NCBI GenBank assembly: GCA_003255745.1
Contig: QKYL01000001.1
Coordinates: 1-64,000 of the forward strand
Direction: 5' to 3'
Length of the DNA: 64,000 nt
From: Paracoccus saliphilus
GTDB taxonomy: Bacteria > Pseudomonadota > Alphaproteobacteria > Rhodobacterales > Rhodobacteraceae
Translations under genes and position numbers: made by a program
Shown here: piece after piece, positions 5,133 to 21,563 of the stretch
Layout: each line of letters opens with the position of its first letter
Position numbering within the stretch: the first letter of the stretch is position 1
The notes under the pieces: model-generated
The model's input: only the letters and a program-made list of their open reading frames with translations
Told to the model about the DNA's origin: nothing
Databases searched by the model: none

Positions 5133-5138
5133 CCTGAG

Positions 5139-6359: not shown

Positions 6360-6410
6360 GCTGTGATATCCCGCTATCCGCGCCCCACCGGGCGCCGTGT
6401 TGGTGCGCTC

Positions 6411-6437: not shown

Positions 6438-6472
6438 ATTTGCTTTGACTGCATTCAGGAGTGGCCTGCCAC

Positions 6473-7054
6473 ATGACCATCAATCTTCGTGATCGCCGTC
6501 GTCGCCAGACGGCCCGTGACATCCAGCAGGCCGCGCTGCGCGTGGCGCTGCAGGCGGGCTATTGTGCGGCGACCACCGACGCGATTGCGGCCGAAGCCGG
6601 CATCAGTCCCCGCACCTTCTTCAACTATTACCCCAACAAGACGGCGGCGGTGCTGGGGCAGCCGCCGGTCCTGGACACGCAGGCGGGTGCCTGGATCGCG
6701 ACATCAGAGGCGCCGCTGGTTGACGACCTGGTGCGGTTGCTGGGACAGATGCTGAAGGACGACAGCCCCGACCGTCAGACCCTGCGCATGATCGAAAGGC
6801 TGATCGAGACGACGCCGGACATGCAGATACTGTTCCGCAAGTCCCTGGACGCGATCTCCTTTGCCCTTGCCGGCTTGCTGCAGGCGCGGCTTGGGGCGCA
6901 CCGGGCGCTGGAGGCCGACCTGATCGCCGCCATGTCCACCCATGCGCTGGCCAACGGGGTGCGCAGCTGGGCCGCCGATGAAGCGATGGACCTGGACGGG
7001 GTTCTGGACATGACGCGGGATCAGTTGCGAAGCGTCTGCGTGCTTCTGGGCTGA
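6473..7054 (+). CDS. TetR-family transcriptional regulator of the efflux operon
   Basis: This 193-residue protein has an N-terminal TetR helix-turn-helix: about residues 18-60 include TTDAIAAEAGISPRTFFNYYPNK, ending in the typical FFNYYPNK recognition-helix signature. The C-terminal helical part, which would sense the ligand, is variable and gives no substrate clue. The ATG at 6473 is preferred because AGGAG at 6457-6461 lies 11 bases upstream; the GTG at 6461 would overlap that ribosome-binding site. The gene is divergent from the RND operon and next to a perfect inverted repeat, the usual arrangement for a local repressor. It ends 7 bases from the convergent lacI-type gene. Confidence 0.92.
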   Translation: MTINLRDRRRRQTARDIQQAALRVALQAGYCAATTDAIAAEAGISPRTFFNYYPNKTAAVLGQPPVLDTQAGAWIATSEAPLVDDLVRLLGQMLKDDSPDRQTLRMIERLIETTPDMQILFRKSLDAISFALAGLLQARLGAHRALEADLIAAMSTHALANGVRSWAADEAMDLDGVLDMTRDQLRSVCVLLG

Positions 7055-7061
7055 CAGATTC

Positions 7062-8087
7062 CTATTCGCCCGGTGCGGGACCCGTGCTGTCCCGCACCAG
7101 AAGATCGACGCCAAGCGTTGTGCTGTCGATGATCGTCTCGCCCCGCATCCGGGCCAGCAGCAGTTCGGCCGCGCGGCGGCCAAGGCGGGCGCGATACTGG
7201 CGGATCGTGGTCAGCGGCGGCAGGCAATAGGCCGACATCTCGATGTTGTCGAAGCCCATGACCGAGATGTCCTGCGGCACCCGCAGGCCCCCGCAGATCA
7301 GCCCGTGGATCAGCCCGATGGCCATTTCGTCATTGTCGCAGAAGACCGCCGTCGGCCGGTTGCGCAGGTCCAGGATCTTTGCCGCAGCCTCGCGGCCAAA
7401 GCGGGCGGTGAAGTTGCCTTCGATGCTGTCGTCCGGGCCCGGGGCGGGCAGGGCCGCCTCGGCCAGTCCCTGAAGAAAGCCTTCGCGCCGCGCCACGGTC
7501 AGCGAATTGCCGCCCGGTCCGGTCAGATGCAGGATGCGGCGGTGGCCATGGCCGGCAAGATGCCGGGCCGCAAGCCGCCCGCCTTCGACATTGTCGGCCA
7601 GCACGCGGGGTGCGTCCAGGCCATCGATCCATTCGCAGGCCTGCACCAGCGGCGGGCAGCCGGGCTGGTCGAACAGGCGCGGGTCCAGGCTGCCGTCCAG
7701 CACGATCACCCCGTCCGAGCGTGACCTGTTCAGATAAGGGGCCAGCATCGTCATGGCCGGCTGTTCGGGCACCGCCGTTGTGTCCAGCACCAGCAGGCTG
7801 AGACCCTTGGTGCGCAGTACCTCTGAAATGCCGGACAGGATCTCGGAAAAGAACGGATTTGCCAGCTTGGGCACCAGCGCCAGCACCCCGCCCACCTGCT
7901 GCTGGCGCAGGTTCCGGGCTGTGAAGTTCAGCGTGTAGCCTGTCTGGGCAATGGCGGCCTCGACCGCCTTGCGCGTGTCTTTGGACACGATCGAGGGGTT
8001 TGATATGGCGCGGCTGACGGTGGCCACGGATACCCCCGCCAACTTGGCGACGTCATGGATGCGCGGCGGACGGGCTTGATCTGACAC
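7062..8087 (-). CDS. LacI-family transcriptional regulator of the carbohydrate locus
   Basis: This 341-residue regulator has the LacI helix-turn-helix at residues 10-30 (HDVAKLAGVSVATVSRAISN), a hinge helix with NFTARNLRQQQ, and a periplasmic-binding-protein-like sensor domain for a sugar or sugar derivative. It is divergent from the isomerase/oxidoreductase/ABC operon. Near-palindromic 14-bp sites lie between the two genes and recur upstream of the GMC operon and of the gene at 18136-18999. It is therefore the probable regulator of all three units and of itself. Whether it represses or activates, and which ligand it senses, cannot be told. Confidence 0.93.
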   Translation of the reverse strand: MSDQARPPRIHDVAKLAGVSVATVSRAISNPSIVSKDTRKAVEAAIAQTGYTLNFTARNLRQQQVGGVLALVPKLANPFFSEILSGISEVLRTKGLSLLVLDTTAVPEQPAMTMLAPYLNRSRSDGVIVLDGSLDPRLFDQPGCPPLVQACEWIDGLDAPRVLADNVEGGRLAARHLAGHGHRRILHLTGPGGNSLTVARREGFLQGLAEAALPAPGPDDSIEGNFTARFGREAAAKILDLRNRPTAVFCDNDEMAIGLIHGLICGGLRVPQDISVMGFDNIEMSAYCLPPLTTIRQYRARLGRRAAELLLARMRGETIIDSTTLGVDLLVRDSTGPAPGE

Positions 8088-8137
8088 CGGAATCTCGCTG
8101 TTGGGATAGGATCAGGCTTTAACGGAAAAAATGCGGT

Positions 8138-8151
8138 TGTAAACCTTTTCA
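8138..8151. promoter_or_regulatory. LacI-type operator, copy 1
   Basis: TGTAAACCTTTTCA fits the consensus TGTAAWSSKTTWCA shared by five sites in this locus. It lies 51-64 bases upstream of the lacI-type start, so it probably serves autoregulation. Confidence 0.65.
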
Positions 8152-8169
8152 TCCTGTGAGAGCCTCTGT

Positions 8170-8183
8170 TGAAACCGATTACA
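8170..8183. promoter_or_regulatory. LacI-type operator, copy 2
   Basis: TGAAACCGATTACA (TGTAATCGGTTTCA on the other strand) matches the same consensus. It lies 25-38 bases upstream of the ATG at 8209, a position suited to blocking transcription of the isomerase-ABC operon. Confidence 0.7.
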
Positions 8184-8208
8184 TGGAGGCAATCGGTTGG
8201 GGGGAATC

Positions 8209-9267
8209 ATGAAGACGATAAAGGGCCCGGGCCTGTTCCTGGCGCAGTTTGCAGGGCCGGCGGCGCCGTTCGACAGCTTTGACCGCATCACGGCCTGGGC
8301 GGCGGATTGCGGCTATCTGGGCGTGCAGGTGCCATCGGCGCAGGCGTCGCTGATCGACCTGGACCTTGCGGCGACCTCGGCTGTCTATTGCGACGAATTG
8401 TCGGGCCAGGCTCGTGCCAACGGGGTCCAGATCACCGAATTGTCTGCCCATGTCCAGGGCCAGCTGGTTGCGGTTCATCCCGCCTTCGATGCCGCCTTCG
8501 ACGGCTTTTCACCCGCCCATGTGCGCGGCAACCCGAAGGCGCGGCAGGCTTGGGCAGTTGAGCAGGTGATGAAGACCATCGACGCTTCGGCGCATCTGGG
8601 GCTGGACCGGATGGCGGCCTTTTCCGGCGCGCTGGCCTGGCCTTATCTTTACCCTTGGCCGCAGCGCCCGAAGGGACTGATCGAGGCTGCGTTTGACGAA
8701 CTGGCCGCGCGCTGGCGTCCCATCCTTGATCATGCCGAGAGCCGCGGCGTGGACATCTGCTTTGAGATCCATCCGGGCGAGGATCTGCATGACGGGATCA
8801 CCTTCGAGATGTTCCTGGACCGGGTGGACCAGCATCCGCGTGCCAAGATGCTTTATGATCCTTCGCATTACCTGCTGCAACAGCTGGATTACCTTGAGAA
8901 TATTGACATCTATGCCAGCCGTATCGGCATGTTCCATGTCAAGGATGCCGAGTTCAACCCGACAGGGCGGCAGGGGGTCTATGGCGGCTATCAGCCGTGG
9001 GTCGACCGCGCCGGCCGCTTCCGCAGTCCCGGTGACGGGCAGGTGGACTTCAAGGCGATCTTTTCGCGCCTGACGGCCGCAGGCTTTGATGGCTGGGCGG
9101 TGGTCGAGTGGGAGTGCGCGCTGAAGCACCCCGAGGACGGCGCCCGCGAAGGCGCGGCCTTTGTGCGCGATCACATCATCCGCGTGACAGACCGCGCCTT
9201 TGACGACTTTGCGGATGGCGGTGCGGATCAGGCGGCAAACCTTCGAATGCTGGGATTGGACCGATGA
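8209..9267 (+). CDS. Sugar phosphate isomerase/epimerase-like TIM-barrel protein, cytoplasmic
   Basis: This 352-residue protein belongs to the xylose-isomerase-like TIM-barrel (AP endonuclease 2) superfamily. Likely metal ligands sit in CFEIHPGEDLHDG, KMLYDPSHY, FHVKDAEF and VVEWECALKHPEDG. There is no signal peptide, so it acts in the cytoplasm. The ATG at 8209 follows a GGGGGGA ribosome-binding site; the in-frame TTG at 8197 lies before that site and is less likely. It is the first gene of an operon with an oxidoreductase and a sugar ABC importer. A role in isomerising or cleaving an imported keto-sugar is inferred from context. The exact substrate is unknown. Confidence 0.85.
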   Translation: MKTIKGPGLFLAQFAGPAAPFDSFDRITAWAADCGYLGVQVPSAQASLIDLDLAATSAVYCDELSGQARANGVQITELSAHVQGQLVAVHPAFDAAFDGFSPAHVRGNPKARQAWAVEQVMKTIDASAHLGLDRMAAFSGALAWPYLYPWPQRPKGLIEAAFDELAARWRPILDHAESRGVDICFEIHPGEDLHDGITFEMFLDRVDQHPRAKMLYDPSHYLLQQLDYLENIDIYASRIGMFHVKDAEFNPTGRQGVYGGYQPWVDRAGRFRSPGDGQVDFKAIFSRLTAAGFDGWAVVEWECALKHPEDGAREGAAFVRDHIIRVTDRAFDDFADGGADQAANLRMLGLDR

Positions 9268-10376
9268 CACCACTGGTTCCCATCCGTCTTGGGATGGTCG
9301 GCGGCGGCGCCGGCGCTATGATCGGCAATGTCCACCGCATCGCCGCGCGCCTGGACGGGCAGTTCGATCTTGTGGCCGGGGCGCTGTCATCGGATCCCGA
9401 TCGCGCAGCAGCCAGCGCAGCCGCGGCGGGCATCCGTCGCAGCTATGGCGATTACGCACAGATGGCGCGGGACGAGGCAGCCCGGCCTGACGGCATCCAG
9501 GCGGTTTCCATCTGCACCCCCAATCACCTTCATTTCCCGGTGGCGCGCGCCTTTCTGGCGCAGGGCATCCATGTCATCTGCGACAAGCCGATGACCGCGA
9601 CGCTGGACGAGGCGCGCCAACTGGCCGAAGCGGCGCGGGCGTCGAGCGCGCTGTTCATCCTGACGCACAACTATTCCGCCTATCCGCAGATCCGCCAGGC
9701 GCGCGCGATGATCGCGCGCGGCGATCTGGGCAGGCTACGGCTGGTGCAGGTCGAATACGCGCAGGATTGGCTGACCGAAGCCTCTGATAGCAAGCAGGCC
9801 GAATGGCGCGGCGATCCTGCACGGGCCGGGGCAGGGGGTGCCATCGGCGATATTGGCACGCATGCCTTCCAGTTGGCGCGCTTTGTTACGGATGAGTTGC
9901 CCGAGCGGCTGGCCGCCGATCTGACCAGCTTTGTTCCCGGCCGCAGGCTGGATGACAATGCGCATATTTTGTTGCGCTATTCGTCGGGGGCCAAGGGTAT
10001 GCTCTGGGCCTCGCAGGTGGCGCCGGGGACGGAAAACGGGCTGCGCCTGCGCGTTTATGGCGACAATGCCGGACTGGAATGGCAGCACGACACCCCCGAG
10101 ACGCTGAAATACACCCCTTTCGGTCAGCCTGCGCAGATCCTGCGCCGCGCCGGTCCCGGCAGCGTTGTGGGCGGCAGCCGCGTCCCCCCAGGCCACCCTG
10201 AGGGTTATCTTGAAGGGTTTGCGAACCTTTATGCAGAGGCCGCCGATGCGATACGCGGCGGCACCCATCCTGACACCCTTCCTGGCATCCGAGACGGGCT
10301 GGAGGGGTTGGCCTTCATCGACGCCTGCATCCGGTCAAACGACGCGGACGCGGCTTGGGTCCGGGTGATGCCATGA
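9264..10376 (+). CDS. Gfo/Idh/MocA-family NAD(P)-dependent sugar oxidoreductase
   Basis: This 370-residue protein has an N-terminal Rossmann fold beginning RLGMVGGGAGAMIGNVH, followed by CTPNHLHFPVA and the family signature DKPMTATLDEA that carries the catalytic lysine. GAIGDIGTHAFQLARF in the C-terminal domain holds the expected aspartate and histidine. Members interconvert hydroxyl and keto groups on sugars, inositols or their derivatives. It overlaps the preceding stop by 4 bases (ATGA) and is followed by the ABC ATPase with the same overlap. In this setting it may reduce or oxidise an imported 3-keto or epimerised sugar; that is inference. Confidence 0.92.
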   Translation: MTPLVPIRLGMVGGGAGAMIGNVHRIAARLDGQFDLVAGALSSDPDRAAASAAAAGIRRSYGDYAQMARDEAARPDGIQAVSICTPNHLHFPVARAFLAQGIHVICDKPMTATLDEARQLAEAARASSALFILTHNYSAYPQIRQARAMIARGDLGRLRLVQVEYAQDWLTEASDSKQAEWRGDPARAGAGGAIGDIGTHAFQLARFVTDELPERLAADLTSFVPGRRLDDNAHILLRYSSGAKGMLWASQVAPGTENGLRLRVYGDNAGLEWQHDTPETLKYTPFGQPAQILRRAGPGSVVGGSRVPPGHPEGYLEGFANLYAEAADAIRGGTHPDTLPGIRDGLEGLAFIDACIRSNDADAAWVRVMP

Positions 10377-11878
10377 CCGATCCCGTCCTGGCGCTGAACG
10401 GCGTCACCAAATCCTTTGGTCCCATCGAGATCCTGCACGGCGTCGATTTCGCCCTGCATCCCGGAGAAGTCCACGCCCTGATCGGCGAGAACGGCGCGGG
10501 TAAATCAACAACGATGAAGATCCTTGCCGGATACCTGGACCCCACGGGCGGACAGGTGACCTGGCAGGGCAAGCCCGTCGCCTTCAAGGGCTCGGATCAG
10601 GCCGAGGATCTGGGGATCATCATGATCCATCAGGAATTCAACTTGGCCGACCATCTGTCGGTGGACCAGAACGTTTTCCTGGGCCGCGAGCTGCGGCGCG
10701 GGCTGATGCTGGACCACAAGGCGATGCGGGCGCAGACTGCCGAGCTGCTGGGCCAGTTGCAATGCAGGGTGGACCCAGGCATGCCGGTGAACCGCATATC
10801 GGTTCCCGACAAGCAGATGGTGGAAATCGCCAAGGCGCTGTCGCGCAAGGCCCGCGTCCTGATCATGGACGAACCCACCGCCGTGCTGACCGAGCGCGAA
10901 ACCGAGGTGTTGTTCGCCCAGATCGAACGTTTGCGGGGCGAGGGGGTCGCGATCCTTTACACCTCGCACAAGCTGGGCGAGGTCAAGCGCATCGCCGACC
11001 GCGTAACGGTGCTGCGTGACGGAACAATGGTGCGCTCTGACCTGACTGCCGACGTGTCCGAGGACGACATGGCCGCGGCGATGGTGGGGCGCGAACTGTC
11101 CGACCTGTTCCCCCAAAAAACCTTTCAAGCAGCCGAGCCGATCCTGGAGGCGCAGGGCATCACCGTGCCGGGCGTGGTCCATGACGCGAGCCTTACCCTG
11201 CACCGGGGCGAGGTTCTGGGCATTGGCGGCCTGGTCGGATCGGGGCGGACCGAACTGGCCGAGGCCATCGCCGGCCTGCGCCCGCGCAGCGGCACGGTGC
11301 GCCTGAAGGGGCAGGACCTGCCCGGCAACGACGTGGCGCAGGCCATGCGCGCGGGACTGGTCTATCTGACCGAGGACCGCAAGGGCGCGGGCCTGCTGCT
11401 GGACAAGTCGCTGCGCGAGAACCTGACCTTGGGACAACTGGACCGTTTCGGCAGCCCCCTGATCGACCGCAAGCGCGAAGAGACTGCGCTTGACACGGCT
11501 ATCTCCGACTTCGCGATCCGCGCACCGGACCGCGATATGGCGGTGGGCGACCTGTCGGGCGGCAACCAGCAAAAGCTGCTGCTGGCAAAGACACTGCTGT
11601 CAGACCCGCAGGTCGTCATCATCGACGAACCGACGCGCGGCATCGATATCGGCACCAAGCAGCAGATCTATGCCCTGATCGCGCGGCTGGCGACAGAAGG
11701 GCGCAGCATCATCGTGATTTCGTCGGAAATGCCCGAGCTGATCGGCCTGGCCAGCCGCGTGGTCGTCATGCACGCGGGCCGGATCGCAGGCGAACTGGTC
11801 CAAGGGGCCGTGACCGAAGGCAATATCGTGCGTCTGGCCATGGGCATGGACGGACATGAGAAGGACAGCGCCGCATGA
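10373..11878 (+). CDS. Sugar ABC transporter ATP-binding protein, RbsA type (two nucleotide-binding domains)
   Basis: This 501-residue protein carries two fused ATPase domains, as in ribose and other monosaccharide importers. The first domain has GENGAGKST (Walker A) and VLIMDEPTAVLTE (Walker B). The second has a degenerate Walker A region (GGLVGSGRTELAE), the signature LSGGNQQKLLLAK and VVIIDEPTRGIDIGTK. The start at 10373 overlaps the preceding TGA (ATGA) and is preferred over an in-frame start 18 bases upstream. Its own stop overlaps the permease start. It energises uptake through the permease and binding protein encoded next. Confidence 0.95.
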   Translation: MTDPVLALNGVTKSFGPIEILHGVDFALHPGEVHALIGENGAGKSTTMKILAGYLDPTGGQVTWQGKPVAFKGSDQAEDLGIIMIHQEFNLADHLSVDQNVFLGRELRRGLMLDHKAMRAQTAELLGQLQCRVDPGMPVNRISVPDKQMVEIAKALSRKARVLIMDEPTAVLTERETEVLFAQIERLRGEGVAILYTSHKLGEVKRIADRVTVLRDGTMVRSDLTADVSEDDMAAAMVGRELSDLFPQKTFQAAEPILEAQGITVPGVVHDASLTLHRGEVLGIGGLVGSGRTELAEAIAGLRPRSGTVRLKGQDLPGNDVAQAMRAGLVYLTEDRKGAGLLLDKSLRENLTLGQLDRFGSPLIDRKREETALDTAISDFAIRAPDRDMAVGDLSGGNQQKLLLAKTLLSDPQVVIIDEPTRGIDIGTKQQIYALIARLATEGRSIIVISSEMPELIGLASRVVVMHAGRIAGELVQGAVTEGNIVRLAMGMDGHEKDSAA

Positions 11879-12870
11879 GCATGGCAACCACCGCCCCGAC
11901 CCGGCGTCCCAGGGTCAATCTTGCCATGATCGCGCCCGTGGTGGCGCTGGTCGTGCTGGTCCTGATCGGCATGGCGCTGAACCCGAATTTTCTCAGCTAT
12001 GCCAACATCACCAATGTGCTGGCCCGCTCGGCCTTCATCGGGATCATTGCCATCGGCATGACCTTTGTGATCACCGCAGGCGGGCTGGACCTGTCGGTCG
12101 GCTCGATGGCGGCCTTTGTGGCGGGTCTGATGATCCTGGTCATGAACCTTCTGACCGACAGCATGGGGGGCGGGCTGCCGGTCATCCTGCTGGGCGTTGC
12201 ACTGGCCCTGTTCGCGGGGCTGGCGGCCGGCTTTGTCAACGGCATCCTGATCACCCGCGCCGGGATCGAGGCATTCATCCTGACGCTTGGCACAATGGGC
12301 ATCTATCGCAGCCTGGTGACGTGGCTGGCCGATGGCGGCACACTGTCACTGGGCTATGAGATGCGGGAACTGTATCGCCCCGTCTATTACGGCGGCATCC
12401 TGGGGATCAGCTGGCCGATCATCGTCTTTGCCGTGCTGGCGATCCTGGGAGAGATCACCATGCGCCACACCGCCTTCGGTCGCCACTGCGCAGCCATCGG
12501 GTCCAATGAACGGGTCGCGCGCTATTCCTCCGTGGCGGTGCTGCGGGTGCGGCTCATGACCTATGTCCTGCTGGGCACGCTGGTGGGCATTGCGGTGGTC
12601 ATGTACGTGCCGCGCCTCGGGTCCGCCTCGGCCACCACGGGCCTGCTGTGGGAGCTGGAGGCCATCGCGGCCGTCATCATCGGCGGCACGCTGCTGAAGG
12701 GCGGCTTCGGACGGGTCTGGGGCACGGTCGTGGGCGTGCTGATCCTGTCGCTGATCGGCAACCTGTTGAACCTGACCGATTTCGTCAGCCCCTATCTGAA
12801 CGGTGCCATCCAGGGCGTCGTCATCATCCTTGCGGTCGTGCTGCAAAGGAACACCGGCGCTGCACGCTGA
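11875..12870 (+). CDS. Sugar ABC transporter permease, RbsC type
   Basis: This 331-residue inner-membrane protein has about 8-10 hydrophobic segments and the RbsC-type motif FVITAGGLDLSVGSMAAF near residues 62-79. GSNERVARYSSVAVLRVR in the cytoplasmic loop is the expected contact region for the ATPase, and LWELEAIAAVIIGGTLLKGG is the family's late signature. It is translationally coupled to the ATPase by an ATGA overlap and is followed 27 bases later by the binding-protein gene. The imported substrate is probably a monosaccharide-sized carbohydrate. Confidence 0.95.
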   Translation: MSMATTAPTRRPRVNLAMIAPVVALVVLVLIGMALNPNFLSYANITNVLARSAFIGIIAIGMTFVITAGGLDLSVGSMAAFVAGLMILVMNLLTDSMGGGLPVILLGVALALFAGLAAGFVNGILITRAGIEAFILTLGTMGIYRSLVTWLADGGTLSLGYEMRELYRPVYYGGILGISWPIIVFAVLAILGEITMRHTAFGRHCAAIGSNERVARYSSVAVLRVRLMTYVLLGTLVGIAVVMYVPRLGSASATTGLLWELEAIAAVIIGGTLLKGGFGRVWGTVVGVLILSLIGNLLNLTDFVSPYLNGAIQGVVIILAVVLQRNTGAAR

Positions 12871-12897
12871 GTTTCACCTGTGGGAGGAGTAACCACC

Positions 12898-13833
12898 ATG
12901 AGAAAGACCCTGATTGCCACGACCGCCCTGATGGGCCTGACAGCCGTCCCGGCGCTGTCGGAAACCATCGGCATTTCGATCCCGGCCGCGACGCATGGCT
13001 GGGCGGGGGCGCTGAACTTTCACGCCGAACGCACCGTCGCACGACTGTCCGAGGCGAACCCGGATATGGAATTCGTGCTGACGACCACCTCGGACCCCGG
13101 TCAGCAGGTGTCCGACCTGGAGGACATGGTGGCCACCCGCGGTATCGACGCGCTGGTTGTGCTGCCTTTTGAATCCGAGCCGCTGACCGGCCCCATCCAG
13201 CGCATTGCGGACAGCGGCGTCTGGGTCACCGTGGTCGACCGTGGCCTTTCGCAGGAAGGGATCGAGAACCTTTACGTCGCCGGCGACAATGACAGTTTCG
13301 GCCGCACGGCTGGCCAGTATTTCGCCGACACGCTGGATGAGGGCGCCAAGGTCGTCGTGATGCGCGGCATCGCATCCACCGTCGACAACGAGCGTGTGGC
13401 AGGTTTTGAAGCCGCGCTGGAGGGTTCGGGCATCGAGGTTCTGGCCATGGACCACGGCAACTGGAACCGCGACACCGCCTTTGGCCTGATGCAGGACTGG
13501 CTGTCCCGCTTTCCGGAAATCGACGCGGTCTGGGCGGCTGACGACGACATGGCCGTGGGCGCGCTGGCGGCCATTGACCAGGCGGGTCGCACCGACGAGA
13601 TGTTCGTGGTCGGCGGCGCCGGCATGAAGGAGATGGTTGACCGCATCCGCAACGAGGACCCCACGGTGCCGGTGAACGTGACCTATCCGCCGTCGATGAT
13701 TTCGACCGCGATCGAGATGACGGTTCTGGGCCTGACCTCGGGCGCGCCCATGTCGGGCGAGTTCATCATTGCCTCCGAACTGATCACGCCCGAAAACGCC
13801 GACAACTTCTATTTCGAAGACAGCCCTTATTGA
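12898..13833 (+). CDS. Sugar ABC transporter periplasmic substrate-binding protein
   Basis: This 311-residue protein has a Sec signal peptide (MRKTLIATTALMGLTAVPALS) and the ribose/galactose-type binding-protein fold. SIPAATHGWAGAL at the start of the mature chain, VVDRGL and AADDDMAVGALAAI fit that family. It captures the carbohydrate in the periplasm and hands it to the permease. The ATG at 12898 has a strong GGGAGGAG site 8-15 bases upstream. A 10-bp hairpin follows the stop and may protect the 3' end, a common feature of highly expressed binding-protein genes. Close relatives bind ribose, xylose or similar sugars; specificity is not predictable here. Confidence 0.93.
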   Translation: MRKTLIATTALMGLTAVPALSETIGISIPAATHGWAGALNFHAERTVARLSEANPDMEFVLTTTSDPGQQVSDLEDMVATRGIDALVVLPFESEPLTGPIQRIADSGVWVTVVDRGLSQEGIENLYVAGDNDSFGRTAGQYFADTLDEGAKVVVMRGIASTVDNERVAGFEAALEGSGIEVLAMDHGNWNRDTAFGLMQDWLSRFPEIDAVWAADDDMAVGALAAIDQAGRTDEMFVVGGAGMKEMVDRIRNEDPTVPVNVTYPPSMISTAIEMTVLGLTSGAPMSGEFIIASELITPENADNFYFEDSPY

Positions 13834-13842
13834 TCTGACATC

Positions 13843-13867
13843 GCGGCGCGGGTTTATCCCGCGCCGC
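13843..13867 (+). terminator. Perfect hairpin after the binding-protein gene
   Basis: GCGGCGCGGG-TTTAT-CCCGCGCCGC is a perfect 10-bp stem with a 5-base loop, 10 bases after the stop. There is no T-run, so it may be a partial terminator or an mRNA-stabilising 3' element rather than a full Rho-independent terminator. Confidence 0.55.
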
Positions 13868-13901
13868 AACCGACCCGGAGGAGGGTCGATCCGCCCCGCT
13901 G

Positions 13902-13915
13902 TGTAAACGGTTTCA
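13902..13915. promoter_or_regulatory. LacI-type operator, copy 3
   Basis: TGTAAACGGTTTCA lies 40-53 bases upstream of the exported isomerase gene, in the control region of the GMC dehydrogenase operon. It matches the other sites of the locus. Confidence 0.7.
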
Positions 13916-13954
13916 TTCTGGCGACCGGGGCCACCACACCAAGGGAGGAAGACC

Positions 13955-14842
<888 letters not shown>

Positions 14843-14878
14843 TCCCGCCTCAAGCAAGACCCAAAAAAGGAACGCCAG

Positions 14879-16567
14879 ATGGCAGAGAACATGCATTACG
14901 ACGCAATCGTCGTCGGATCGGGCATCAGCGGCGGTTGGGCCGCCAAGGAGCTGACCGAGCGAGGCCTGAAGGTCCTGATGCTGGAACGCGGCCGCAATAT
15001 CGAGCATCTGACCGATTATGTGAACGCCGACAAGGAAGCCTGGGACTATCCCCATCGCGGCACTGCGACGATCGGCATGAAGGACAACTATCCGGTCCTG
15101 TCGCGCGACTATCCGCTGAACGAGCAGACCTTTGGCATGTGGGCCAACGAGCAGGAGAACCCCTATACCGAGGCCAAGCGCTTTGACTGGTTCCGCGGCT
15201 ATCATGTGGGCGGGCGGTCGCTGATGTGGGGGCGCCAGTCCTATCGCCTGTCCGATACCGATTTCTCCGCCAACGAGCGCGAGGGGATCGCGACCGACTG
15301 GCCGATCCGTTACGCCGACATCGCGCCTTGGTACGACCATGTGGAGCGCTTTGCCGGAATTTCGGGCACGCGCGAAGGGCTGGACATCCTGCCGGACGGA
15401 GAGTTCCTGCCGCCGATCCCGCTGAACATCGTCGAAAAGGACGTGGCCGCCCGTCTGCAGAAGGCCTTCGGCGGCAAGCGCTATCTGATCAACGCGCGCG
15501 TGGCCAACATCACCGAGGCCAAGCCCGAGCAGAACCGCGTCGCCTGCCAGTATCGCAACAAGTGCTGGCTGGGCTGTCCCTATGGCGCCTATTTCAGCAC
15601 GCAGTCGGCCACGCTACCGGCGGCGATGGCGACGGGCAACCTGACGCTGCGCCCGTTCTCGATCGTGAAGGAGGTACTGTACGACAAGGACAGCAAGCGT
15701 GCCCGCGGGGTCGAGATCATCGATGCCGAAACCAACATGACCTATGAATACACCGCCGACGTGGTGTTCCTGAATGCCTCCAGCTTCAATTCGACCTGGC
15801 TGCTGATGAATTCGGCCACCGATGTGTGGGAAGGCGGTCTGGGGTCGTCGTCCGGGGAACTGGGACATAACGTCATGGACCACCACTTCCGCGTGGGCGC
15901 CGAGGGGCGGGTCGAGGGCTATGACGACAAGTACTATTTCGGTCGCCGACCGGCGGGTTTCTATATCCCGCGCTTTCGCAACACCGAGGGAGAGGAACGT
16001 CCCTATACCCGCGGCTTCGGCTATCAGGGATCGGCCAGCCGGCAGGGATGGCGGCGCGAGGTGGCGGAACTGAACATCGGCGCCGACATGAAGGAGGCGC
16101 TGTCCAAGCCGGGCGACTGGACCATCGGCATGACCGGTTTTGGCGAGATGCTGCCCTATCATGACAACTTCATCGCATTGGACCGCGGCACGACCGACAA
16201 GTGGGGCCTGCCGGTCCTGTCGATCAGCGTCGATCTGCGCGAAAACGAGATGCGCATGCGTCAGGACATGAAGCAGGACGCGGTGGACATCCTGGAGGCC
16301 GCCGGCGTCGTCGACGTCAAGCCCACCGAAAGCGATTACGCCCCCGGCATGGGCATCCACGAGATGGGAACGGCGCGGATGGGCCGCGATCCCGAAAGCT
16401 CGGTCCTGAATGGCAACAACCAGGTCTGGGACGCGCCCAACGTCTATGTGACGGACGGGGCCTGCATGACCTCGGCCAGCTGCGTGAACCCCTCGCTGAC
16501 CTATATGGCGCTGACTGCGCGGGCGGCCGAACACGCCGTCAACGCCCTGAAGAACGGAGATCTGTGA
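14879..16567 (+). CDS. GMC-family FAD dehydrogenase large subunit (glucoside 3-dehydrogenase type)
   Basis: This 562-residue flavoprotein has the FAD-binding motif VVGSGISGG at residues 11-19. The GMC C-terminal active site has H494 in HEMGTARMG and N537 in CVNPSLTYM. A cysteine group CQYRNKCWLGC (residues 223-233) is as seen in membrane-linked sugar dehydrogenases of this type. It lacks its own signal peptide, while the next gene, its small subunit, carries a Tat signal, so the pair is probably exported together already folded. The family oxidises sugars or glycosides, often at C3, passing electrons to a cytochrome c; no cytochrome gene is nearby. AAAGGAA precedes the start. Confidence 0.92.
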   Translation: MAENMHYDAIVVGSGISGGWAAKELTERGLKVLMLERGRNIEHLTDYVNADKEAWDYPHRGTATIGMKDNYPVLSRDYPLNEQTFGMWANEQENPYTEAKRFDWFRGYHVGGRSLMWGRQSYRLSDTDFSANEREGIATDWPIRYADIAPWYDHVERFAGISGTREGLDILPDGEFLPPIPLNIVEKDVAARLQKAFGGKRYLINARVANITEAKPEQNRVACQYRNKCWLGCPYGAYFSTQSATLPAAMATGNLTLRPFSIVKEVLYDKDSKRARGVEIIDAETNMTYEYTADVVFLNASSFNSTWLLMNSATDVWEGGLGSSSGELGHNVMDHHFRVGAEGRVEGYDDKYYFGRRPAGFYIPRFRNTEGEERPYTRGFGYQGSASRQGWRREVAELNIGADMKEALSKPGDWTIGMTGFGEMLPYHDNFIALDRGTTDKWGLPVLSISVDLRENEMRMRQDMKQDAVDILEAAGVVDVKPTESDYAPGMGIHEMGTARMGRDPESSVLNGNNQVWDAPNVYVTDGACMTSASCVNPSLTYMALTARAAEHAVNALKNGDL

Positions 16568-17208
16568 TGAACCGCCGCCAACTTCTGACGATGATCGCCG
16601 CCGTCACCGGCACGGCCATGCTGGGCGGGCAGCGCGCCTTTGCATATCTGCCGACGCCGGTGGGCGAGAACATCTTTTCGGACGCCGACGCCGCGTTTCT
16701 GGACGAGGTGGCCGAGACGATCATTCCCGCCACCGATACACCCGGTGCCAAGCAGGCAGGGGTGGGCGCCTTCATGACGCGCTTTGTCAGCGACTGCTAT
16801 ACCGTCGAAGAGCAGGCAGCTTTCCGCGAGGGGATGGAGACGCTGAAGGCCACGGCGCAAAAGGACTATGGCAAGCCCTTCGAGGAGCTGACGGCCGATG
16901 AGCGTCGCGAGATGCTGCAGGCCGCCTCGGTCGCCGCGCGCGAGGAATCGGCCCGCGCCCTGGCCGAGTTGGAGGAGCGGCGCGAGCAGTCGATCGACCA
17001 GCAGAGCGCGGCCGACACCGCCGCCGATGAGCAGCCCGAGGAGGCCGCCGAGCCGCGCATGCACTGGTTCACGCCCTTCCAGCAGTTGACCCTGTTCGGC
17101 TTCTTCACCTCCAAGGTGGGGGCCACGCAGGTGCTGCGCTATGAGCCCGTTCCGGGCGAATACATCGGCGACCTGGATTACAACGGCGAACCAGCCTGGG
17201 CCACCTGA
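16567..17208 (+). CDS. Gluconate 2-dehydrogenase subunit 3 family protein (small subunit of the GMC dehydrogenase)
   Basis: This 213-residue protein starts MNRRQLLTMIAAVTG, a Tat signal, and continues with FLDEVAETIIPATDTPGAKQ and FMTRFVSDCY, typical of the small subunit that accompanies GMC dehydrogenases. Its ATG overlaps the large-subunit stop (TGATG), which implies stoichiometric synthesis. It probably carries the signal-less flavoprotein through the Tat pore. Between about residues 120 and 160 there is a charged Glu/Ala/Gln-rich segment, followed by a conserved end with FTPFQQLTLFGFFTSKVGA. Confidence 0.9.
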   Translation: MNRRQLLTMIAAVTGTAMLGGQRAFAYLPTPVGENIFSDADAAFLDEVAETIIPATDTPGAKQAGVGAFMTRFVSDCYTVEEQAAFREGMETLKATAQKDYGKPFEELTADERREMLQAASVAAREESARALAELEERREQSIDQQSAADTAADEQPEEAAEPRMHWFTPFQQLTLFGFFTSKVGATQVLRYEPVPGEYIGDLDYNGEPAWAT

Positions 17209-17266
17209 ACCCCGCTTCGGCCCCGGCACGTCCGGGGCCGCATGCCTTTCAATCAAGGACATTGCC

Positions 17267-18016
17267 ATGAAACTGATGACATCGATTGCCGCGCTGCTGG
17301 CGCTGGCCGCCCCCGCCCTGGCACAGGACGCCAGCCCCGAAGAACGCCAGGCCCAGTCGCGCGTGACCGAGATCGCCGGTCCCGAACCACGCCTGGTGCA
17401 GACGCCCGAAGGCCAGCCTCCGTCGGATGCCGTTGTGCTGTTCGACGGCAGCAACATGGAGGCATGGGAATCAGTGGATGGCGGTCCGGCCGGATGGAGC
17501 GTCGAGGACGGCGCGATGCGCGTTACGCGCGGTTCTGGCGACATCCGCACCACCGACAGCTTCTGCGACGTGCAACTGCATGTCGAATGGCGGTCGCCCG
17601 CGAACAATGAAGGCCACGACGGGCAGGATCGCGGGAACAGCGGCATCTTCCTGCAGAGCCGTTACGAGGTGCAGGTTCTGGACAGCCATCAGAACCCCAC
17701 TTATGCGAACGGGCAGGCAGGGTCGATCTACAAGCAGCACCTGCCGCTGGTGAACGCTTCGCGCGCGCCCGAGGAGTGGCAAAGCTACGACATCATCTTC
17801 CAGGCGCCGGTCTTTGCGGATGACGGAACGCTGCGGCGTCCGGCCCATGTGACTGTCCTGCACAATGGTGTCGTGGTGCAGAACCACGCCCAGATCCAGG
17901 GCGCCACCGAATGGATCGGCTATCCCTCCTACAAGGCGCATGACTGCGCGCCGATCCAGTTGCAGGACCACGACGCGGATGTCAGCTTTCGCAACATCTG
18001 GGTTCGCCCGATGTGA
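17267..18016 (+). CDS. Secreted DUF1080-domain protein, probable 3-keto-glycoside hydrolase
   Basis: This 249-residue protein has a Sec signal (MKLMTSIAALLALAAPALAQ) followed by a DUF1080 concanavalin-like fold from about residue 50, with LFDGSNMEAWE, DVQLHVEWRSP, NSGIFLQSRYEVQVLDS and the C-terminal DVSFRNIWVRP. DUF1080 proteins have been linked to hydrolysis of 3-keto-disaccharides and glycosides produced by GMC or Gfo-type dehydrogenases. The genomic pairing here supports that role, but the activity of this protein is inferred. AAGGA precedes the ATG at 17267; an earlier in-frame start would overlap the previous gene and lose the signal. A terminator follows, so it ends the operon. Confidence 0.88.
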   Translation: MKLMTSIAALLALAAPALAQDASPEERQAQSRVTEIAGPEPRLVQTPEGQPPSDAVVLFDGSNMEAWESVDGGPAGWSVEDGAMRVTRGSGDIRTTDSFCDVQLHVEWRSPANNEGHDGQDRGNSGIFLQSRYEVQVLDSHQNPTYANGQAGSIYKQHLPLVNASRAPEEWQSYDIIFQAPVFADDGTLRRPAHVTVLHNGVVVQNHAQIQGATEWIGYPSYKAHDCAPIQLQDHDADVSFRNIWVRPM

Positions 18017-18037
18017 CAGCGCGCTACGCGCAACCGT

Positions 18038-18068
18038 GGCCCGTTCCGCATCCGGAGCGGGCCTTTTT
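18038..18068 (+). terminator. Rho-independent terminator of the GMC dehydrogenase operon
   Basis: GGCCCGTTCC-GCAT-CCGGAGCGGGCC forms a GC-rich stem with one G-T pair and a slipped base, followed directly by TTTTT. It lies 22 bases after the DUF1080 stop. Confidence 0.85.
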
Positions 18069-18083
18069 CATGATGAGGACATG

Positions 18084-18111
18084 AAAAGGGGCCGCGACGG
18101 ATCGTGGCCCC
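18084..18111 (-). terminator. Rho-independent terminator of the exported isomerase gene (minus strand)
   Basis: Read on the minus strand, GGGGCC and GGCCCC pair around an inner partly paired segment and are followed by TTTT. It faces the plus-strand terminator 15 bases away and closes the gene at 18136-18999. Confidence 0.8.
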
Positions 18112-18135
18112 AGTCAACCTGTCCAGCAGGGAGGT

Positions 18136-18999
18136 TCAGCGCGTGGCGCCATCCGGCAGGTTTTCAGTCAAGAAGGTCGCGCCGGTCATCACAACCTCGG
18201 CGGCATCTAGGGGCTGGTCATGTTCGATGATGTACCACTGCGTCCCGGCCTCCTCGGCGGCGGGCAGGATCGCGGCCCAATCCAGCGTGCCTTCCCCCAA
18301 GGCCTTGAAGCCGCGTTCGTCGGCCGCCTCGCCCTGGGGCGCATTGTCCTTGGCATGTATCGCAAAAATGCGGTCGTCAAAGCGGCCCAGGTATTCAACC
18401 GGGTTCAGGCCGCCACGCGCAACCCAAGCCAGGTCCAGTTCGGCCATGACGTCGTCGCCGGCTGCGTCCATCATGATTTCCAACGCGGTGCGGCCGTCGA
18501 ACTCGACCATCTCGAAATCGTGGTTGTGATAGGCCAGCGTCATGTCCTCGGCTTCAAGGGTCTTCGACAGCGCGGCCAGTTCCTCGCCCAAGGCGGTCCA
18601 GCCGGCGGCATCGGTGGGACGATCCTCTTCCGCCAGATAAGGAACCGTGATCGTGTCGTTGCCGATGGCCTTGTTGAAGTCGATCACCGCCTGCGGGTCG
18701 GACCGCAGATCAGCCAGTTGTGCATGGGTTGAAATGGCCTCGACCCCGTATTCGTCCAGCAGCGCCTTCAGATCTTCCGCGCTGCTGTCCTGCATGCCGA
18801 CTGTCTCGACGGCCGTGACCCCTGCAGCCTGCACAGCGGCCAGCTGTTCCTGCAGCGTGCCATGATCACGCAGCGTATACATCTGCACCGCGATCGGCAG
18901 TTCAGCGGTTTGCGGATCCTGTGCCAGGGCTGTCGTGCCCATCAGGGCAACGGCGATCAGCGGCAGGCTGCCGCTCTTGGCTAGGCGCGCATAAGTCAT
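18136..18999 (-). CDS. Exported sugar isomerase/epimerase-like TIM-barrel protein with Sec signal
   Basis: This 287-residue protein has an N-terminal Sec signal ending in GTTALAQ (cleavage near residue 26), then a xylose-isomerase-like TIM barrel. Metal-site motifs are TLAYHNHDFEM, MAELDLAWVARGG, IFAIHAKDNAP and WYIIEHDQP. It therefore works in the periplasm, like the Tat-exported relative in the facing operon. Such proteins are often found with DUF1080 proteins and sugar dehydrogenases, and some relatives cleave or isomerise 3-keto-glycosides. Two LacI-type sites lie 46-80 bases upstream, so it probably belongs to the same regulon although transcribed separately. A minus-strand terminator follows. 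Confidence 0.87.
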   Translation of the reverse strand: MTYARLAKSGSLPLIAVALMGTTALAQDPQTAELPIAVQMYTLRDHGTLQEQLAAVQAAGVTAVETVGMQDSSAEDLKALLDEYGVEAISTHAQLADLRSDPQAVIDFNKAIGNDTITVPYLAEEDRPTDAAGWTALGEELAALSKTLEAEDMTLAYHNHDFEMVEFDGRTALEIMMDAAGDDVMAELDLAWVARGGLNPVEYLGRFDDRIFAIHAKDNAPQGEAADERGFKALGEGTLDWAAILPAAEEAGTQWYIIEHDQPLDAAEVVMTGATFLTENLPDGATR

Positions 19000-19044
19000 G
19001 GAATTCTCCTCGCTAGGACCCCGCTCCTCTGGGGCTGGTGTGAA

Positions 19045-19058
19045 TGTAATGGGTTACA
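19045..19058. promoter_or_regulatory. LacI-type operator, copy 4
   Basis: TGTAATGGGTTACA is the most symmetric site of the set (arms TGTAA and TTACA), 46-59 bases upstream of the exported isomerase start at 18999. Confidence 0.65.
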
Positions 19059-19065
19059 CTTCGGA

Positions 19066-19079
19066 TGAAAAGGATTACA
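19066..19079. promoter_or_regulatory. LacI-type operator, copy 5
   Basis: TGAAAAGGATTACA (TGTAATCCTTTTCA on the other strand) is 7 bases from copy 4, giving a tandem pair with centres 21 bases apart, about two helical turns. Confidence 0.65.
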
Positions 19080-19234
19080 TCAAACGTATGGCAGGATTTT
19101 GCTTTGGTGCTGTTGCTGGGGAGGAGGCCCAACAGGTGCCGCTGTCGATCGGATAGTAGTCACAAAAATGTCGTGAAGGTTGATTATGGCGCCAATCCCG
19201 CCTAGGCACCCGCTGCCCCTACAAAGGACCCGCC

Positions 19235-20719
19235 ATGGCCCGGACCGACTTTGAAACCCGTCATCTCGAGACGCTCGACCGCGACCTCGGTCGCTTCTCG
19301 AACCTTGAAAATGCGACTGCTTATGTTTCTCGCCCTCTCGTGGCGCCGGGCGTGGCATTGGCCTTCGTTCTGCTGGCCGGGCTGGGCGCCATGCTGGCTT
19401 TTGGCGAGACAAGCAACACGCTGGTCGTCGCCATGGCGGCCGTGTTCGGAGCTTATATGGCGTTGAACATCGGGGCGAACGACGTGGCCAACAACATGGG
19501 TCCGGCGGTCGGCGCCAACGCACTGACCATGGGCGGGGCCATCGCGATTGCAGCGGTCTTCGAAACCGCCGGCGCCCTGATTGCTGGTGGCGATGTTGTT
19601 GGTACCATCTCGCGCGGGATCATCGCACCCGAAAGCATCGGCACGCAGTCGGTCTTTGTCTGGGCGATGATGGCTGCGCTGCTGTCCTCGGCGCTCTGGG
19701 TGAACCTGGCGACTTGGGTCGGTGCGCCGGTCTCGACCACGCATTCGGTCGTGGGCGGTGTCATGGGGGCAGGGATCGCTGCGGCGGGTTTTGGCGCCGT
19801 CAACTGGCCCACCATGGGCAAAATCGCCGCCAGCTGGGTCGTCTCTCCGCTGCTGGGCGGGCTGATCGCGGCGGGCTTCCTGTGGTTCATCAAGGCGCGC
19901 ATCATCTATCGCCACGACAAGATCGCCGCGGCCCGGGTCTGGGTGCCGGTCCTGGTGGGCATCATGGCCGGGGCCTTTTCGGCCTATCTGGCGCTGAAGG
20001 GTCTCAGCAAGGTGGTCAAGGTGTCGTTCGGGCATTCGCTGCTGATCGGTGCGGCTCTGGGCCTTTTCGTTTGGCTGGCGATGATCCCAGTGATCCGCCG
20101 CCAGTCGCAGGGGCTGGAAAACCGCAACAAGTCGCTGAAGGTGTTGTTCGGCATCCCGCTGGTCGTCTCGGCGGCACTTCTCAGCTTCGCGCATGGCGCC
20201 AATGACGTGGCCAACGCCGTCGGTCCGCTGGCCGCGATCGTGCAGGCCTCCGCCTCGGGCAGCGTGACCGAAGCGGTCTCAATTCCGCTGTGGGTGATGC
20301 TGATCGGCGCCTTCGGGCTGTCCTTCGGCCTGTTCCTCTTTGGGCCCAAACTGATCCGCATGGTGGGCAGCCAGATCACCAAGCTGAACCCGATGCGCGC
20401 CTATTGCGTGGCGCTGTCGGCGGCGCTGACGGTGATCGTTGCCAGTTGGCTGGGCCTGCCGGTCAGTTCGACCCATATCGCAGTCGGTGCGATCTTCGGC
20501 GTGGGCTTTTTCCGGGAATGGGACGCCGAACGGCGCCTGCGCGCCGCGCAGGGCAGCGTTCCGGAACGCCCGCGCCTCGGCCCCGAAGAGCGCAGCCGGC
20601 GCAAGCTGGTGCGCCGGTCGCATGTGATGACCATTGCGGCGGCTTGGGTTGTCACCGTTCCGGCGGCGGCGGCCTTGTCAGCCGCGCTGTTCCTGGTGCT
20701 GCGGCAGATCGGCGGCTAG
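19235..20719 (+). CDS. Low-affinity inorganic phosphate transporter, PiT family
   Basis: This 494-residue inner-membrane protein carries both PiT signature repeats, IGANDVANNMGPAVGA in the N-terminal half and HGANDVANAVGPLAAI in the C-terminal half, each with VSTTHS or VSSTHI later in the repeat. About ten hydrophobic helices are visible, with a charged cytoplasmic stretch near residues 430-465. It imports phosphate or metal-phosphate with protons or sodium. AAAGGA lies 7 bases before the ATG. The gene stands alone, and its stop overlaps that of the convergent hydrolase gene: both read TAG out of the shared palindrome CTAG. No convincing Pho box was seen upstream. Confidence 0.95.
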   Translation: MARTDFETRHLETLDRDLGRFSNLENATAYVSRPLVAPGVALAFVLLAGLGAMLAFGETSNTLVVAMAAVFGAYMALNIGANDVANNMGPAVGANALTMGGAIAIAAVFETAGALIAGGDVVGTISRGIIAPESIGTQSVFVWAMMAALLSSALWVNLATWVGAPVSTTHSVVGGVMGAGIAAAGFGAVNWPTMGKIAASWVVSPLLGGLIAAGFLWFIKARIIYRHDKIAAARVWVPVLVGIMAGAFSAYLALKGLSKVVKVSFGHSLLIGAALGLFVWLAMIPVIRRQSQGLENRNKSLKVLFGIPLVVSAALLSFAHGANDVANAVGPLAAIVQASASGSVTEAVSIPLWVMLIGAFGLSFGLFLFGPKLIRMVGSQITKLNPMRAYCVALSAALTVIVASWLGLPVSSTHIAVGAIFGVGFFREWDAERRLRAAQGSVPERPRLGPEERSRRKLVRRSHVMTIAAAWVVTVPAAAALSAALFLVLRQIGG

Positions 20720-21546: not shown

Positions 21547-21563
21547 GTCGCACCCCTTCACTG

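What the first reader, a model, noticed from the sequence alone, without database searches (positions are those of the whole stretch)
7062..18999. Candidate periplasmic 3-keto-glycoside pathway under one LacI regulator
The sequence shows a GMC dehydrogenase with a Tat-bearing small subunit, a secreted DUF1080 protein, two exported TIM-barrel isomerase-like proteins, a ribose-type ABC importer, and cytoplasmic TIM-barrel and Gfo/Idh/MocA enzymes. GMC/subunit-3 pairs include glucoside 3-dehydrogenases, and DUF1080 proteins have been linked to 3-keto-glycoside cleavage. I infer that a glycoside is oxidised at C3 outside the cytoplasm, split by the DUF1080 protein or an exported isomerase-like protein, then imported and finished inside. 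The particular combination, with two separate exported isomerases, is not one I recognise as described.
Basis: partly seen in the sequence, partly recalled or inferred. Interest (0 to 1): 0.85.

Follow-up and report, generated by a model that had tools for sequence, protein, structure and literature searches.

The report
Periplasmic oxidise-and-eliminate glycoside pathway operon
This bacterium carries a compact gene set that very probably breaks sugar conjugates by first oxidising them outside the cell membrane, snapping the bond, importing the sugar fragment and repairing it to glucose; the core chemistry is already known from Agrobacterium, but here it comes with two extra exported enzymes, one of them of unknown role, and a dedicated regulator.

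Summary
The cytoplasmic TIM barrel (HYD, 8209-9267) is 66% identical to the Agrobacterium 2-hydroxy-3-keto-glucal hydratase. The Sec-exported TIM barrel (OGE, 18136-18999) is 58% identical to the Agrobacterium O-glycoside beta-eliminase AtOGE, with all eight inspected active-site residues kept. The Gfo protein fits the 3-ketoglucose reductase. DUF1080 shares the fold of 3-keto-glycoside eliminase/hydratases. So this is the published oxidation-elimination-hydration-reduction pathway, merged with the DUF1080/TIM-barrel set described by Price et al. around lactose dehydrogenases: a new variant, not a new kind. New here: a five-site LacI operator set found nowhere else in the held 3.75-Mb genome, covering three promoters; a ribose-type ABC importer where many other lineages have a nucleoside-type permease; no c-type cytochrome gene in the cluster; and a Tat-exported Hyi-like TIM barrel (HYIx) recurring beside the dehydrogenase, function unproven, best guess a 3-keto-glycoside epimerase. 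HYD and Gfo form a back end with interchangeable front ends. Substrate and regiochemistry remain untested.

The parts
7062..8087 (-). LacI-family repressor, divergent from the operon
   Evidence: PF00356 1.7e-17, PF13377 8.8e-35; 79/51/55% identical counterparts in L008/L009/L149
8138..8183 (+). two LacI-type operator boxes (8138-8151 and 8170-8183), 32 bp apart, before HYD
   Evidence: conserved at the same place and spacing in L008 (3104, 3136)
8209..9267 (+). HYD: cytoplasmic TIM barrel, predicted 2-hydroxy-3-keto-glucal hydratase
   Evidence: 5.5e-164 to 8ro4; 66% identity over 350 aa
9264..10376 (+). GFO: Gfo/Idh/MocA, predicted 3-ketoglucose reductase
   Evidence: a GFO lies next to HYD in 33 of 34 other HYD loci of the window's class
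10373..11878 (+). ABCA: ribose-type ABC ATPase
   Evidence: PF00005 1.1e-52
11875..12870 (+). ABCP: ribose-type permease
   Evidence: PF02653 1.3e-33
12898..13833 (+). SBP: Sec-exported sugar-binding protein
   Evidence: PF13407 5e-43; leader
13902..13915 (.). LacI-type operator box between SBP and HYIx, suggesting a second promoter
   Evidence: found by the pattern, not used to make it
13955..14842 (+). HYIx: Tat-exported Hyi/OtnI-like TIM barrel, role unproven; best guess 3-keto-glycoside epimerase or isomerase
   Evidence: E174, D210, H213, H234, H236, E273 invariant in 49 sequences
14879..16567 (+). GMC flavoprotein dehydrogenase, large subunit, no leader seen
   Evidence: 77% to the GMC of the A. 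tumefaciens MAG operon L020
16567..17208 (+). GDH3: gluconate 2-dehydrogenase subunit 3-type small subunit with Tat leader
   Evidence: PF13618 1.3e-36, scanned as ORF 16201-17208; sequence
17267..18016 (+). DUF1080 (PF06439): Sec-exported, predicted 3-keto-glycoside eliminase/hydratase
18136..18999 (-). OGE: Sec-exported TIM barrel, predicted O-glycoside beta-eliminase
   Evidence: 5.8e-94 to AtOGE 8bvk, 58% identity; active site E65 H92 H158 H160 E187 D189 H215 E259
19045..19079 (-). two LacI-type operator boxes (19045-19058 and 19066-19079), 21 bp apart, before OGE
   Evidence: conserved in L008 (14173, 14194)

Best explanation
The locus is a LacI-controlled catabolic unit for glycosides. 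(1) The GMC flavoprotein is carried to the periplasm by its Tat-tagged small subunit and oxidises a glycosyl residue, most likely at C3. (2) The exported OGE, and probably DUF1080, expel the aglycone by beta-elimination, leaving 2-hydroxy-3-keto-glucal; DUF1080 may also hydrate it to 3-keto-glucose. (3) HYIx, a Tat-exported keto-sugar epimerase/isomerase-type enzyme, most likely converts other 3-keto-glycosides (for example the galacto form) into the one the eliminase accepts. (4) The ribose-type ABC importer brings in the glucal or 3-keto-glucose. (5) Cytoplasmic HYD hydrates the glucal, and (6) Gfo reduces 3-keto-glucose to glucose. Shown here: gene content, homology, active-site conservation, leader-like N-termini, operator set, recurrence. 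Inferred: the reactions, compartments in vivo, substrate, role of HYIx, cargo of the importer.
For: HYD 66% to 8ro4, deposited as 2-hydroxy-3-keto-glucal hydratase. OGE 58% to AtOGE, whose beta-elimination of 3-keto-phlorizin, structure and inactive H134A variant are in PMC10628242 (sections 7, 8, 14 read); all eight inspected residues kept. L020, an A. tumefaciens MAG, carries HYD-GFO-OGE-GMC-GDH3 with HYD 95% to 8ro4, OGE 93% to 8bvk and a GMC 77% identical to the window's. Its OGE also has a Sec-type leader behind a ribosome-binding site, so exported elimination is shared. DUF1080 fold neighbours 8v31, 8tda, 8rr2, 9fbe are titled 3-keto-2-hydroxy-glucal hydratase or 3-keto-glycoside eliminase/hydratase. 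Five operators, three promoters, no other site in the genome. HYD and GFO both present in 37 and both absent in 20 of 57 long loci; adjacent in 33 of 34 loci of the window's class. The importer class differs between loci while the enzymes stay.
Against: No substrate evidence; C3 regiochemistry rests on homology, and the GlycDH sequence itself was not available to compare. DUF1080 is only 17-20% identical (TM about 0.5) to the named eliminase/hydratases; the closest solved one (4qhz, 51%) is titled only 'putative glycosyl hydrolase'. HYIx falls nearest to hydroxypyruvate/2-oxo-tetronate isomerases, not to a known 3-keto-glycoside enzyme. No cytochrome gene in the cluster, although lactose 3-dehydrogenase is three-component. 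The SBP family lies near HYD in only 5 of 9 genomes of the class that have it, own included, with a divergent HYD-like gene in a sixth. 20 of 57 long loci with this GMC show no HYD or GFO in the stretch. Co-occurrence counts are not corrected for phylogeny; the operator pattern was made from four of the five sites; Palleronia has only one box and none before its OGE.
Confidence: 0.8

Rival explanations
1. Hydrolysis route: DUF1080 alone cleaves the 3-keto-glycoside in the periplasm to 3-keto-sugar, and OGE/HYD are secondary, as proposed for Caulobacter lactose use.
For: Price et al. propose a DUF1080 3'-ketolactose hydrolase from mutant fitness data (PMC9007349 section 10). DUF1080 is with HYD in 33 of 37 long loci.
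Against: A. tumefaciens-type loci L011 and L020 show OGE and HYD but no DUF1080 in their 21.7-kb stretches. The window OGE keeps the full AtOGE site. DUF1080 relatives are themselves titled eliminase/hydratase, so the two routes may be one chemistry.
Confidence: 0.3
2. Inositol-type catabolism: IolE-like TIM barrel, Gfo dehydrogenase and ribose-type ABC importer under LacI act on inositol or a related cyclitol.
For: HYD and OGE give IolE hits (TIGR04379 66.7 and 58.9 bits; solved IolE proteins 3cny 5.6e-10 and 9zmu 4.5e-04 for HYD; 9zmu 3.1e-05 for OGE); the gene types are those of inositol loci (recalled).
Against: TIGR04379 is far below its cut-off of 290 bits; HYD matches the hydratase 8ro4 at 5.5e-164 and OGE matches AtOGE at 5.8e-94; no further inositol gene among the eleven by name; the GMC pair and DUF1080 do not fit.
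Confidence: 0.04
3. HYIx is not an epimerase but a second eliminase (for example for alpha-glycosides) or a 3-keto/2-keto isomerase.
For: C-glycoside-acting DgpB-C (7drd) and the epimerase YcjR (6wn6) are both among its fold neighbours; its nearest family, Hyi/OtnI, moves a carbonyl between neighbouring carbons (family names; chemistry recalled).
Against: It keeps a Glu/Asp/His/Glu pattern of the Hyi/epimerase alignments rather than the HxH pair of OGE at the same place. This does not decide the reaction.
Confidence: 0.4

Closest known systems
A. tumefaciens GlycDH-AtOGE-AtHYD-Gfo glycoside pathway (Bitter et al. 2023, PMC10628242; structures 8bvk, 8ro4)
   Same: Same four enzyme types: GMC, OGE (58%), HYD (66%), Gfo; OGE has a Sec-type leader in the A. 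tumefaciens MAG locus L020 as well.
   Different: Window adds exported HYIx and DUF1080; its ABC importer is another one (ATPase/permease/SBP 34/31/25% to L011, 34/28/25% to L020); OGE has its own promoter.
Caulobacter crescentus lactose 3-dehydrogenase cluster (Price et al. 2022, PMC9007349)
   Same: Dehydrogenase with DUF1080, transporter, two 'epimerases' and a reductase. Indibacter alkaliphilus LW1, one of their example strains, is L060 here, with DUF1080, cytochrome, HYD, GFO, NUP, HYIx, GMC, GDH3 and OGEb; that this is the cluster of their Fig 6B is inferred.
   Different: Window has no cytochrome gene and an ABC importer; L060's GMC is 68% identical. The Caulobacter sequences were not compared.
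Bacteroides BT2157-type DUF1080 enzymes (PDB titles of 8tda, 8v31, 8rr2, 9fbe; 3osd = BT2157)
   Same: Same fold and family as the window DUF1080.
   Different: 17-20% identity in the fold search; the BT2158 family 'glycoside 3-dehydrogenase' (NF058561) matches the window's GFO, not its GMC.

Membership tests
A. tumefaciens-type oxidation-elimination-hydration-reduction pathway | beta-eliminase of the AtOGE family with its Mn site and catalytic His | tested here: met
   58% identity; H132/H134/D163/H189/E233 equivalents kept
A. tumefaciens-type oxidation-elimination-hydration-reduction pathway | 2-hydroxy-3-keto-glucal hydratase homologue | tested here: met
   66% over 350 aa to 8ro4
A. tumefaciens-type oxidation-elimination-hydration-reduction pathway | GlycDH-type GMC dehydrogenase and Gfo reductase in the same locus | tested here: met
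   77% and 64% to the GMC and GFO of L020; that L020's GMC equals the published GlycDH is inferred from the operon
A. tumefaciens-type oxidation-elimination-hydration-reduction pathway | C3 oxidation and beta-elimination activity | not testable with these tools
   needs enzymes and NMR/MS
LacABC lactose 3-dehydrogenase | GMC subunit plus small subunit | tested here: met
   PF00732/PF05199 and PF13618
LacABC lactose 3-dehydrogenase | three components (that the third is a cytochrome is recalled) | tested here: not met
   no CxxCH in any ORF of 60 aa or more touching 7062-18999 or in 5001-22000; a whole-genome search with L013's cytochrome was empty but without positive control, so a partner elsewhere is not excluded
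DUF1080 3-keto-glycoside eliminase/hydratase | PF06439 domain and fold | tested here: met
   9.7e-44; model pLDDT 78, matches 4qhz, 8tda, 8rr2
DUF1080 3-keto-glycoside eliminase/hydratase | catalytic residues of the characterised enzymes | tested here: inconclusive
   some conserved stretches (GNSGIF, E.QVLD, Q.H) are shared with 8tda in the printed alignment, but the catalytic residues are not known to me
3-keto-D-glucoside 4-epimerase (YcjR, 6wn6) | sequence and fold relation for HYIx | tested here: inconclusive
   7.1e-08 by profile, TMt 0.75, but Hyi/OtnI structures rank higher
Hydroxypyruvate / 2-oxo-tetronate isomerase | curated NCBIfam cut-off for HYIx | tested here: not met
   TIGR03234 96.8 bits against 353.45; NF043033 96.7 against 325; it also has a Tat leader

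The most novel reading that the evidence does not exclude
HYIx is a periplasmic 3-keto-glycoside epimerase, a new enzyme function: it funnels several oxidised glycosides, including 3-keto-galactosides from lactose, into the gluco form that one exported eliminase accepts. This would answer the published open question of the fate of 3-ketogalactose. The RbsABC-type importer carries 2-hydroxy-3-keto-glucal or 3-keto-glucose, and a genome such as G568 (perhaps G478, whose SBP reads in two frames), with importer-HYD-GFO but no GMC, GDH3 or OGE match, would live on keto-sugars released by neighbours.
Probability: 0.22. Interest if true: 0.7.

Novelty: new variant of a known kind. Interest (0 to 1): 0.48.

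Why it matters
It ties together two published lines that the texts read here do not connect: the Agrobacterium beta-elimination pathway and the lactose-dehydrogenase/DUF1080 clusters. Price et al. state that the fate of 3-ketogalactose is unknown; in the strain Indibacter alkaliphilus LW1 that they name, the TIM-barrel genes around the dehydrogenase (L060) now read as a 2-hydroxy-3-keto-glucal hydratase (71% to AtHYD), an OGE-type protein with the eliminase residues, and HYIx. The locus offers a compact, regulated, testable version, with a clear operator for finding further members and a sharply posed unknown enzyme.

Tried and rejected
Inositol catabolism was considered and set aside. A script for CG-centred palindromes and for one LacI half-pattern found no operator in the window; the boxes were seen by eye in the printed sequence and then tested. 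An empty-site comparison through the PiT gene was dropped because the same-genus genome G023 has only a 47% homologue. Whether the SBP marks HYD loci was tested and is only partly true: near HYD in 5 of 9 genomes (own included), a divergent HYD-like gene in a sixth, nothing in three. A whole-genome search for the Hymenobacter cytochrome was empty and uncontrolled, so it is not used as proof. DUF1080 hits down to 28 bits were counted; with a stricter limit the count would fall. Rows dropped before counts: 23 of 80 loci shorter than 19 kb were left out of the 57 used for co-occurrence. The crude signal rule mis-calls HYD (18 of 47 'SEC') and missed the leaders of the L008 and L020 OGE, which I read by eye; its first form also mis-called LacI and GMC. 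The operator scan of L174-L177 covered one strand only and was repeated on both. The pdb_via library could not be used. Literature searches; no listed paper that I opened joins the two pathways, but the library lacks most subscription papers. Seen: PMC9007349, section 10 whole plus passages; PMC10628242, abstract, outline, sections 7, 8, 14 and passages; PMC11003636 and PMC11501099, one passage each; PMC13273386, start of abstract and an empty term search; all others listings only. Recalled, not seen: Kastner et al. 2024, Nasseri et al. 2024, Arellano et al. 2010.
Full report
Observation. Exact starts: HYD 8209, GDH3 16567 (overlapping the GMC stop), DUF1080 17267. Leaders: Tat-type on HYIx and GDH3; Sec-type on SBP, DUF1080 and OGE; none read on GMC, HYD or Gfo. 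These calls are by a crude rule of mine and by eye.

What the parts are. Against solved structures, the cytoplasmic TIM barrel matches 8ro4, deposited as 2-hydroxy-3-keto-glucal hydratase, at 5.5e-164 (66% identity). The Sec-exported TIM barrel matches 8bvk, AtOGE, at 5.8e-94 (58%). Bitter et al. 2023 (PMC10628242; abstract, outline, sections 7, 8, 14 and passages seen) show that AtOGE cleaves 3-keto-phlorizin by beta-elimination and that an H134A variant is inactive, and propose the chain oxidation, elimination, hydration, reduction; they call their evidence for the hydratase step preliminary. All eight AtOGE residues that I checked (E39, H66, H132, H134, E161, D163, H189, E233) are kept in 10 of 10 aligned OGE sequences, the window's and AtOGE included. 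In a second group (OGEb; 19-33% identity to AtOGE), found mainly in Bacteroidota loci, six of the eight are kept in all 51 sequences aligned (those above 190 bits); E39 in 50 of 51 (one gap), E161 in 46 of 51. The Gfo protein matches 3v5n at 3.1e-137.

Compartment. The main text of that paper does not use the words periplasm, cytoplasm or signal peptide. In L020, an A. tumefaciens MAG with HYD 95% to 8ro4 and OGE 93% to 8bvk, the OGE frame extends upstream of the crystallised sequence into a Sec-type leader behind a GGAAAGGGAG ribosome-binding site with a TTG start (my reading). So exported elimination with cytoplasmic hydration and reduction seems to be the common design, and not peculiar to the window. 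A cytoplasmic hydratase implies that the elimination product itself, or a mixture with 3-keto-glucose, is imported (inference).

DUF1080. The AlphaFold model (pLDDT 78, pTM 0.75) finds 4qhz (51% identity) and, further down, 8v31, 8tda, 8rr2 and 9fbe, whose titles name 3-keto-2-hydroxy-glucal hydratases and 3-keto-glycoside eliminase/hydratases, at 17-20% identity and TM about 0.5. The window thus probably holds two exported cleaving enzymes and two hydratases, one on each side of the membrane.

HYIx. The model (pLDDT 86, pTM 0.83) is nearest to 3ngf and 1k77 (Hyi/OtnI family), with ketose epimerases, YcjR (6wn6) and DgpB-C behind them. The profile search agrees on 3ngf. E174, D210, H213, H234, H236 and E273 are invariant in 49 sequences; E174, D210, H234 and E273 align with acidic/His positions of 3ngf, and all but the last visibly with the ketose 3-epimerases too (that these are the metal site is recalled). 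It lies directly next to the GMC in 37 of 56 loci that have both. The function is unproven; an epimerase role is my best guess.

Recurrence. Of 57 loci of 19 kb or more: GDH3 55, HYIx 38, HYD 37, GFO 37, nucleoside-type permease 37, RbsA-like ATPase 1, cytochrome 32, DUF1080 36, OGE 4, OGEb 30. HYD and GFO go together without exception (37 both, 20 neither); HYIx with HYD 35 of 38, against 2 of 19 without HYIx. The loci that lack HYIx and HYD are mostly Bacteroidota loci with GMC, GDH3 and the permease only. These numbers are not corrected for relatedness. In the window's own family, 3 of 295 genomes have a GMC at E <= 1e-150, own included: the locus is patchy.

Back end and front ends. HYD homologues (E <= 1e-60) are in 33 of 385 genomes of the window's class, taken to be Alphaproteobacteria. 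In 33 of 34 fetched loci, own left out, a GFO is next to HYD; the exception lies on a 10-kb contig. Only 8 of the 32 other genomes have a GMC at E <= 1e-40, four of them at 47-50% in their best match. Of the 34 loci, three have a GMC above 400 bits in the stretch, four pair HYD-GFO with an OGE-like protein without a leader (L135, L153, L159, L164), and four with an RbsABC importer and no GMC (L131, L141, L152, L157). Of these last four genomes, G478 and G568 show no GMC, GDH3 or OGE match, G210 has only a 35% OGE-like protein in another locus, and G558 has a 28% GMC with a GDH3 elsewhere; G478's SBP reads in two frames, so its importer may be broken. The importer is less specific than I expected: 5 of 9 genomes with an SBP homologue, own included, have it near HYD, and G309 has a divergent HYD-like gene.

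Regulation. Reading the LacI-HYD and pre-OGE stretches of the window, P. liaowanqingii and Palleronia gave the pattern TGWAAHCSNTTWCA. In the window it matches at 8138, 8170, 13902, 19045 and 19066 (seven strand matches; mean 0.00 in 100 shuffles). In the whole held genome there is no other match, against one match of the reversed control pattern. The box at 13902 was not used to make the pattern. Spacings of 32 and 21 bp are about three and two helical turns. Boxes occur in L008 (four), L009 (one), L149 (two), L131 (three), L141 (two), L152 (one), L020 (two) and in the Halomonas locus L012 just before its OGE and near LacI; in 8 of the 36 fetched class loci and 9 of the 80 named loci in all, L021-L024 among them; none in L010, L011, L013, L157, L060 or L174-L177. 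So one LacI plausibly controls three promoters here: HYD to SBP, HYIx to DUF1080, and OGE.

Known or new. Price et al. 2022 (PMC9007349; section 10 read in full) describe lactose dehydrogenase with DUF1080, a transporter, two epimerases and a reductase, and call the fate of 3-ketogalactose unknown. Indibacter alkaliphilus LW1, which they name, is L060 here: HYD 71% to AtHYD, an OGEb in the residue alignment, HYIx, GMC 68%. The window is therefore a variant of known systems. The differences are the ABC importer, the absence of a cytochrome gene in the cluster, the true OGE with its own operators, and the pairing of OGE with DUF1080 and HYIx.

Noticed in passing
L152 and L157 (genomes G478, G568): GFO-HYD-SBP-permease-ATPase in genomes without any GMC, GDH3 or OGE match: possible scavengers of keto-sugars made by others. 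L152 has LacI and one operator box but its SBP reads in two frames; L157 has no box.
   Followed up: partly
L143, L146, L147: Three genomes of about 1.4 Mb keep HYD-GFO; in L143 beside a SBP_bac_1/BPD_transp_1 importer and Dak1/Dak2 dihydroxyacetone kinase genes.
   Followed up: partly
L135:7397-8155, L153, L159, L164: OGE-like proteins with the HNH motif but no leader, near HYD-GFO and, in L135, a SBP_bac_1-type binding protein: a possible cytoplasmic version of the front end.
   Followed up: partly
L083, L071, L053, L068, L014: Tandem GMC genes (two to five in a row) beside one GDH3 in Bacteroidota and Gemmatimonadota loci, perhaps dehydrogenases of different specificity sharing one small subunit.
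   Followed up: no
L012 (Halomonas sp. PA16-9): GMC, GFO and LacI each read in two or more frames in this record, so the set is broken there or the record has sequencing errors.
   Followed up: no
window 52001-60000: AT skew is strongly negative (-0.13 and -0.225) over a run of long + strand ORFs (54440-56581, 56583-58136, 58147-59625).
   Followed up: no
G000 contigs C13, C49, C154: Three further, distant GMC proteins (27-40% identity in the matched pieces) in the same genome.
   Followed up: no
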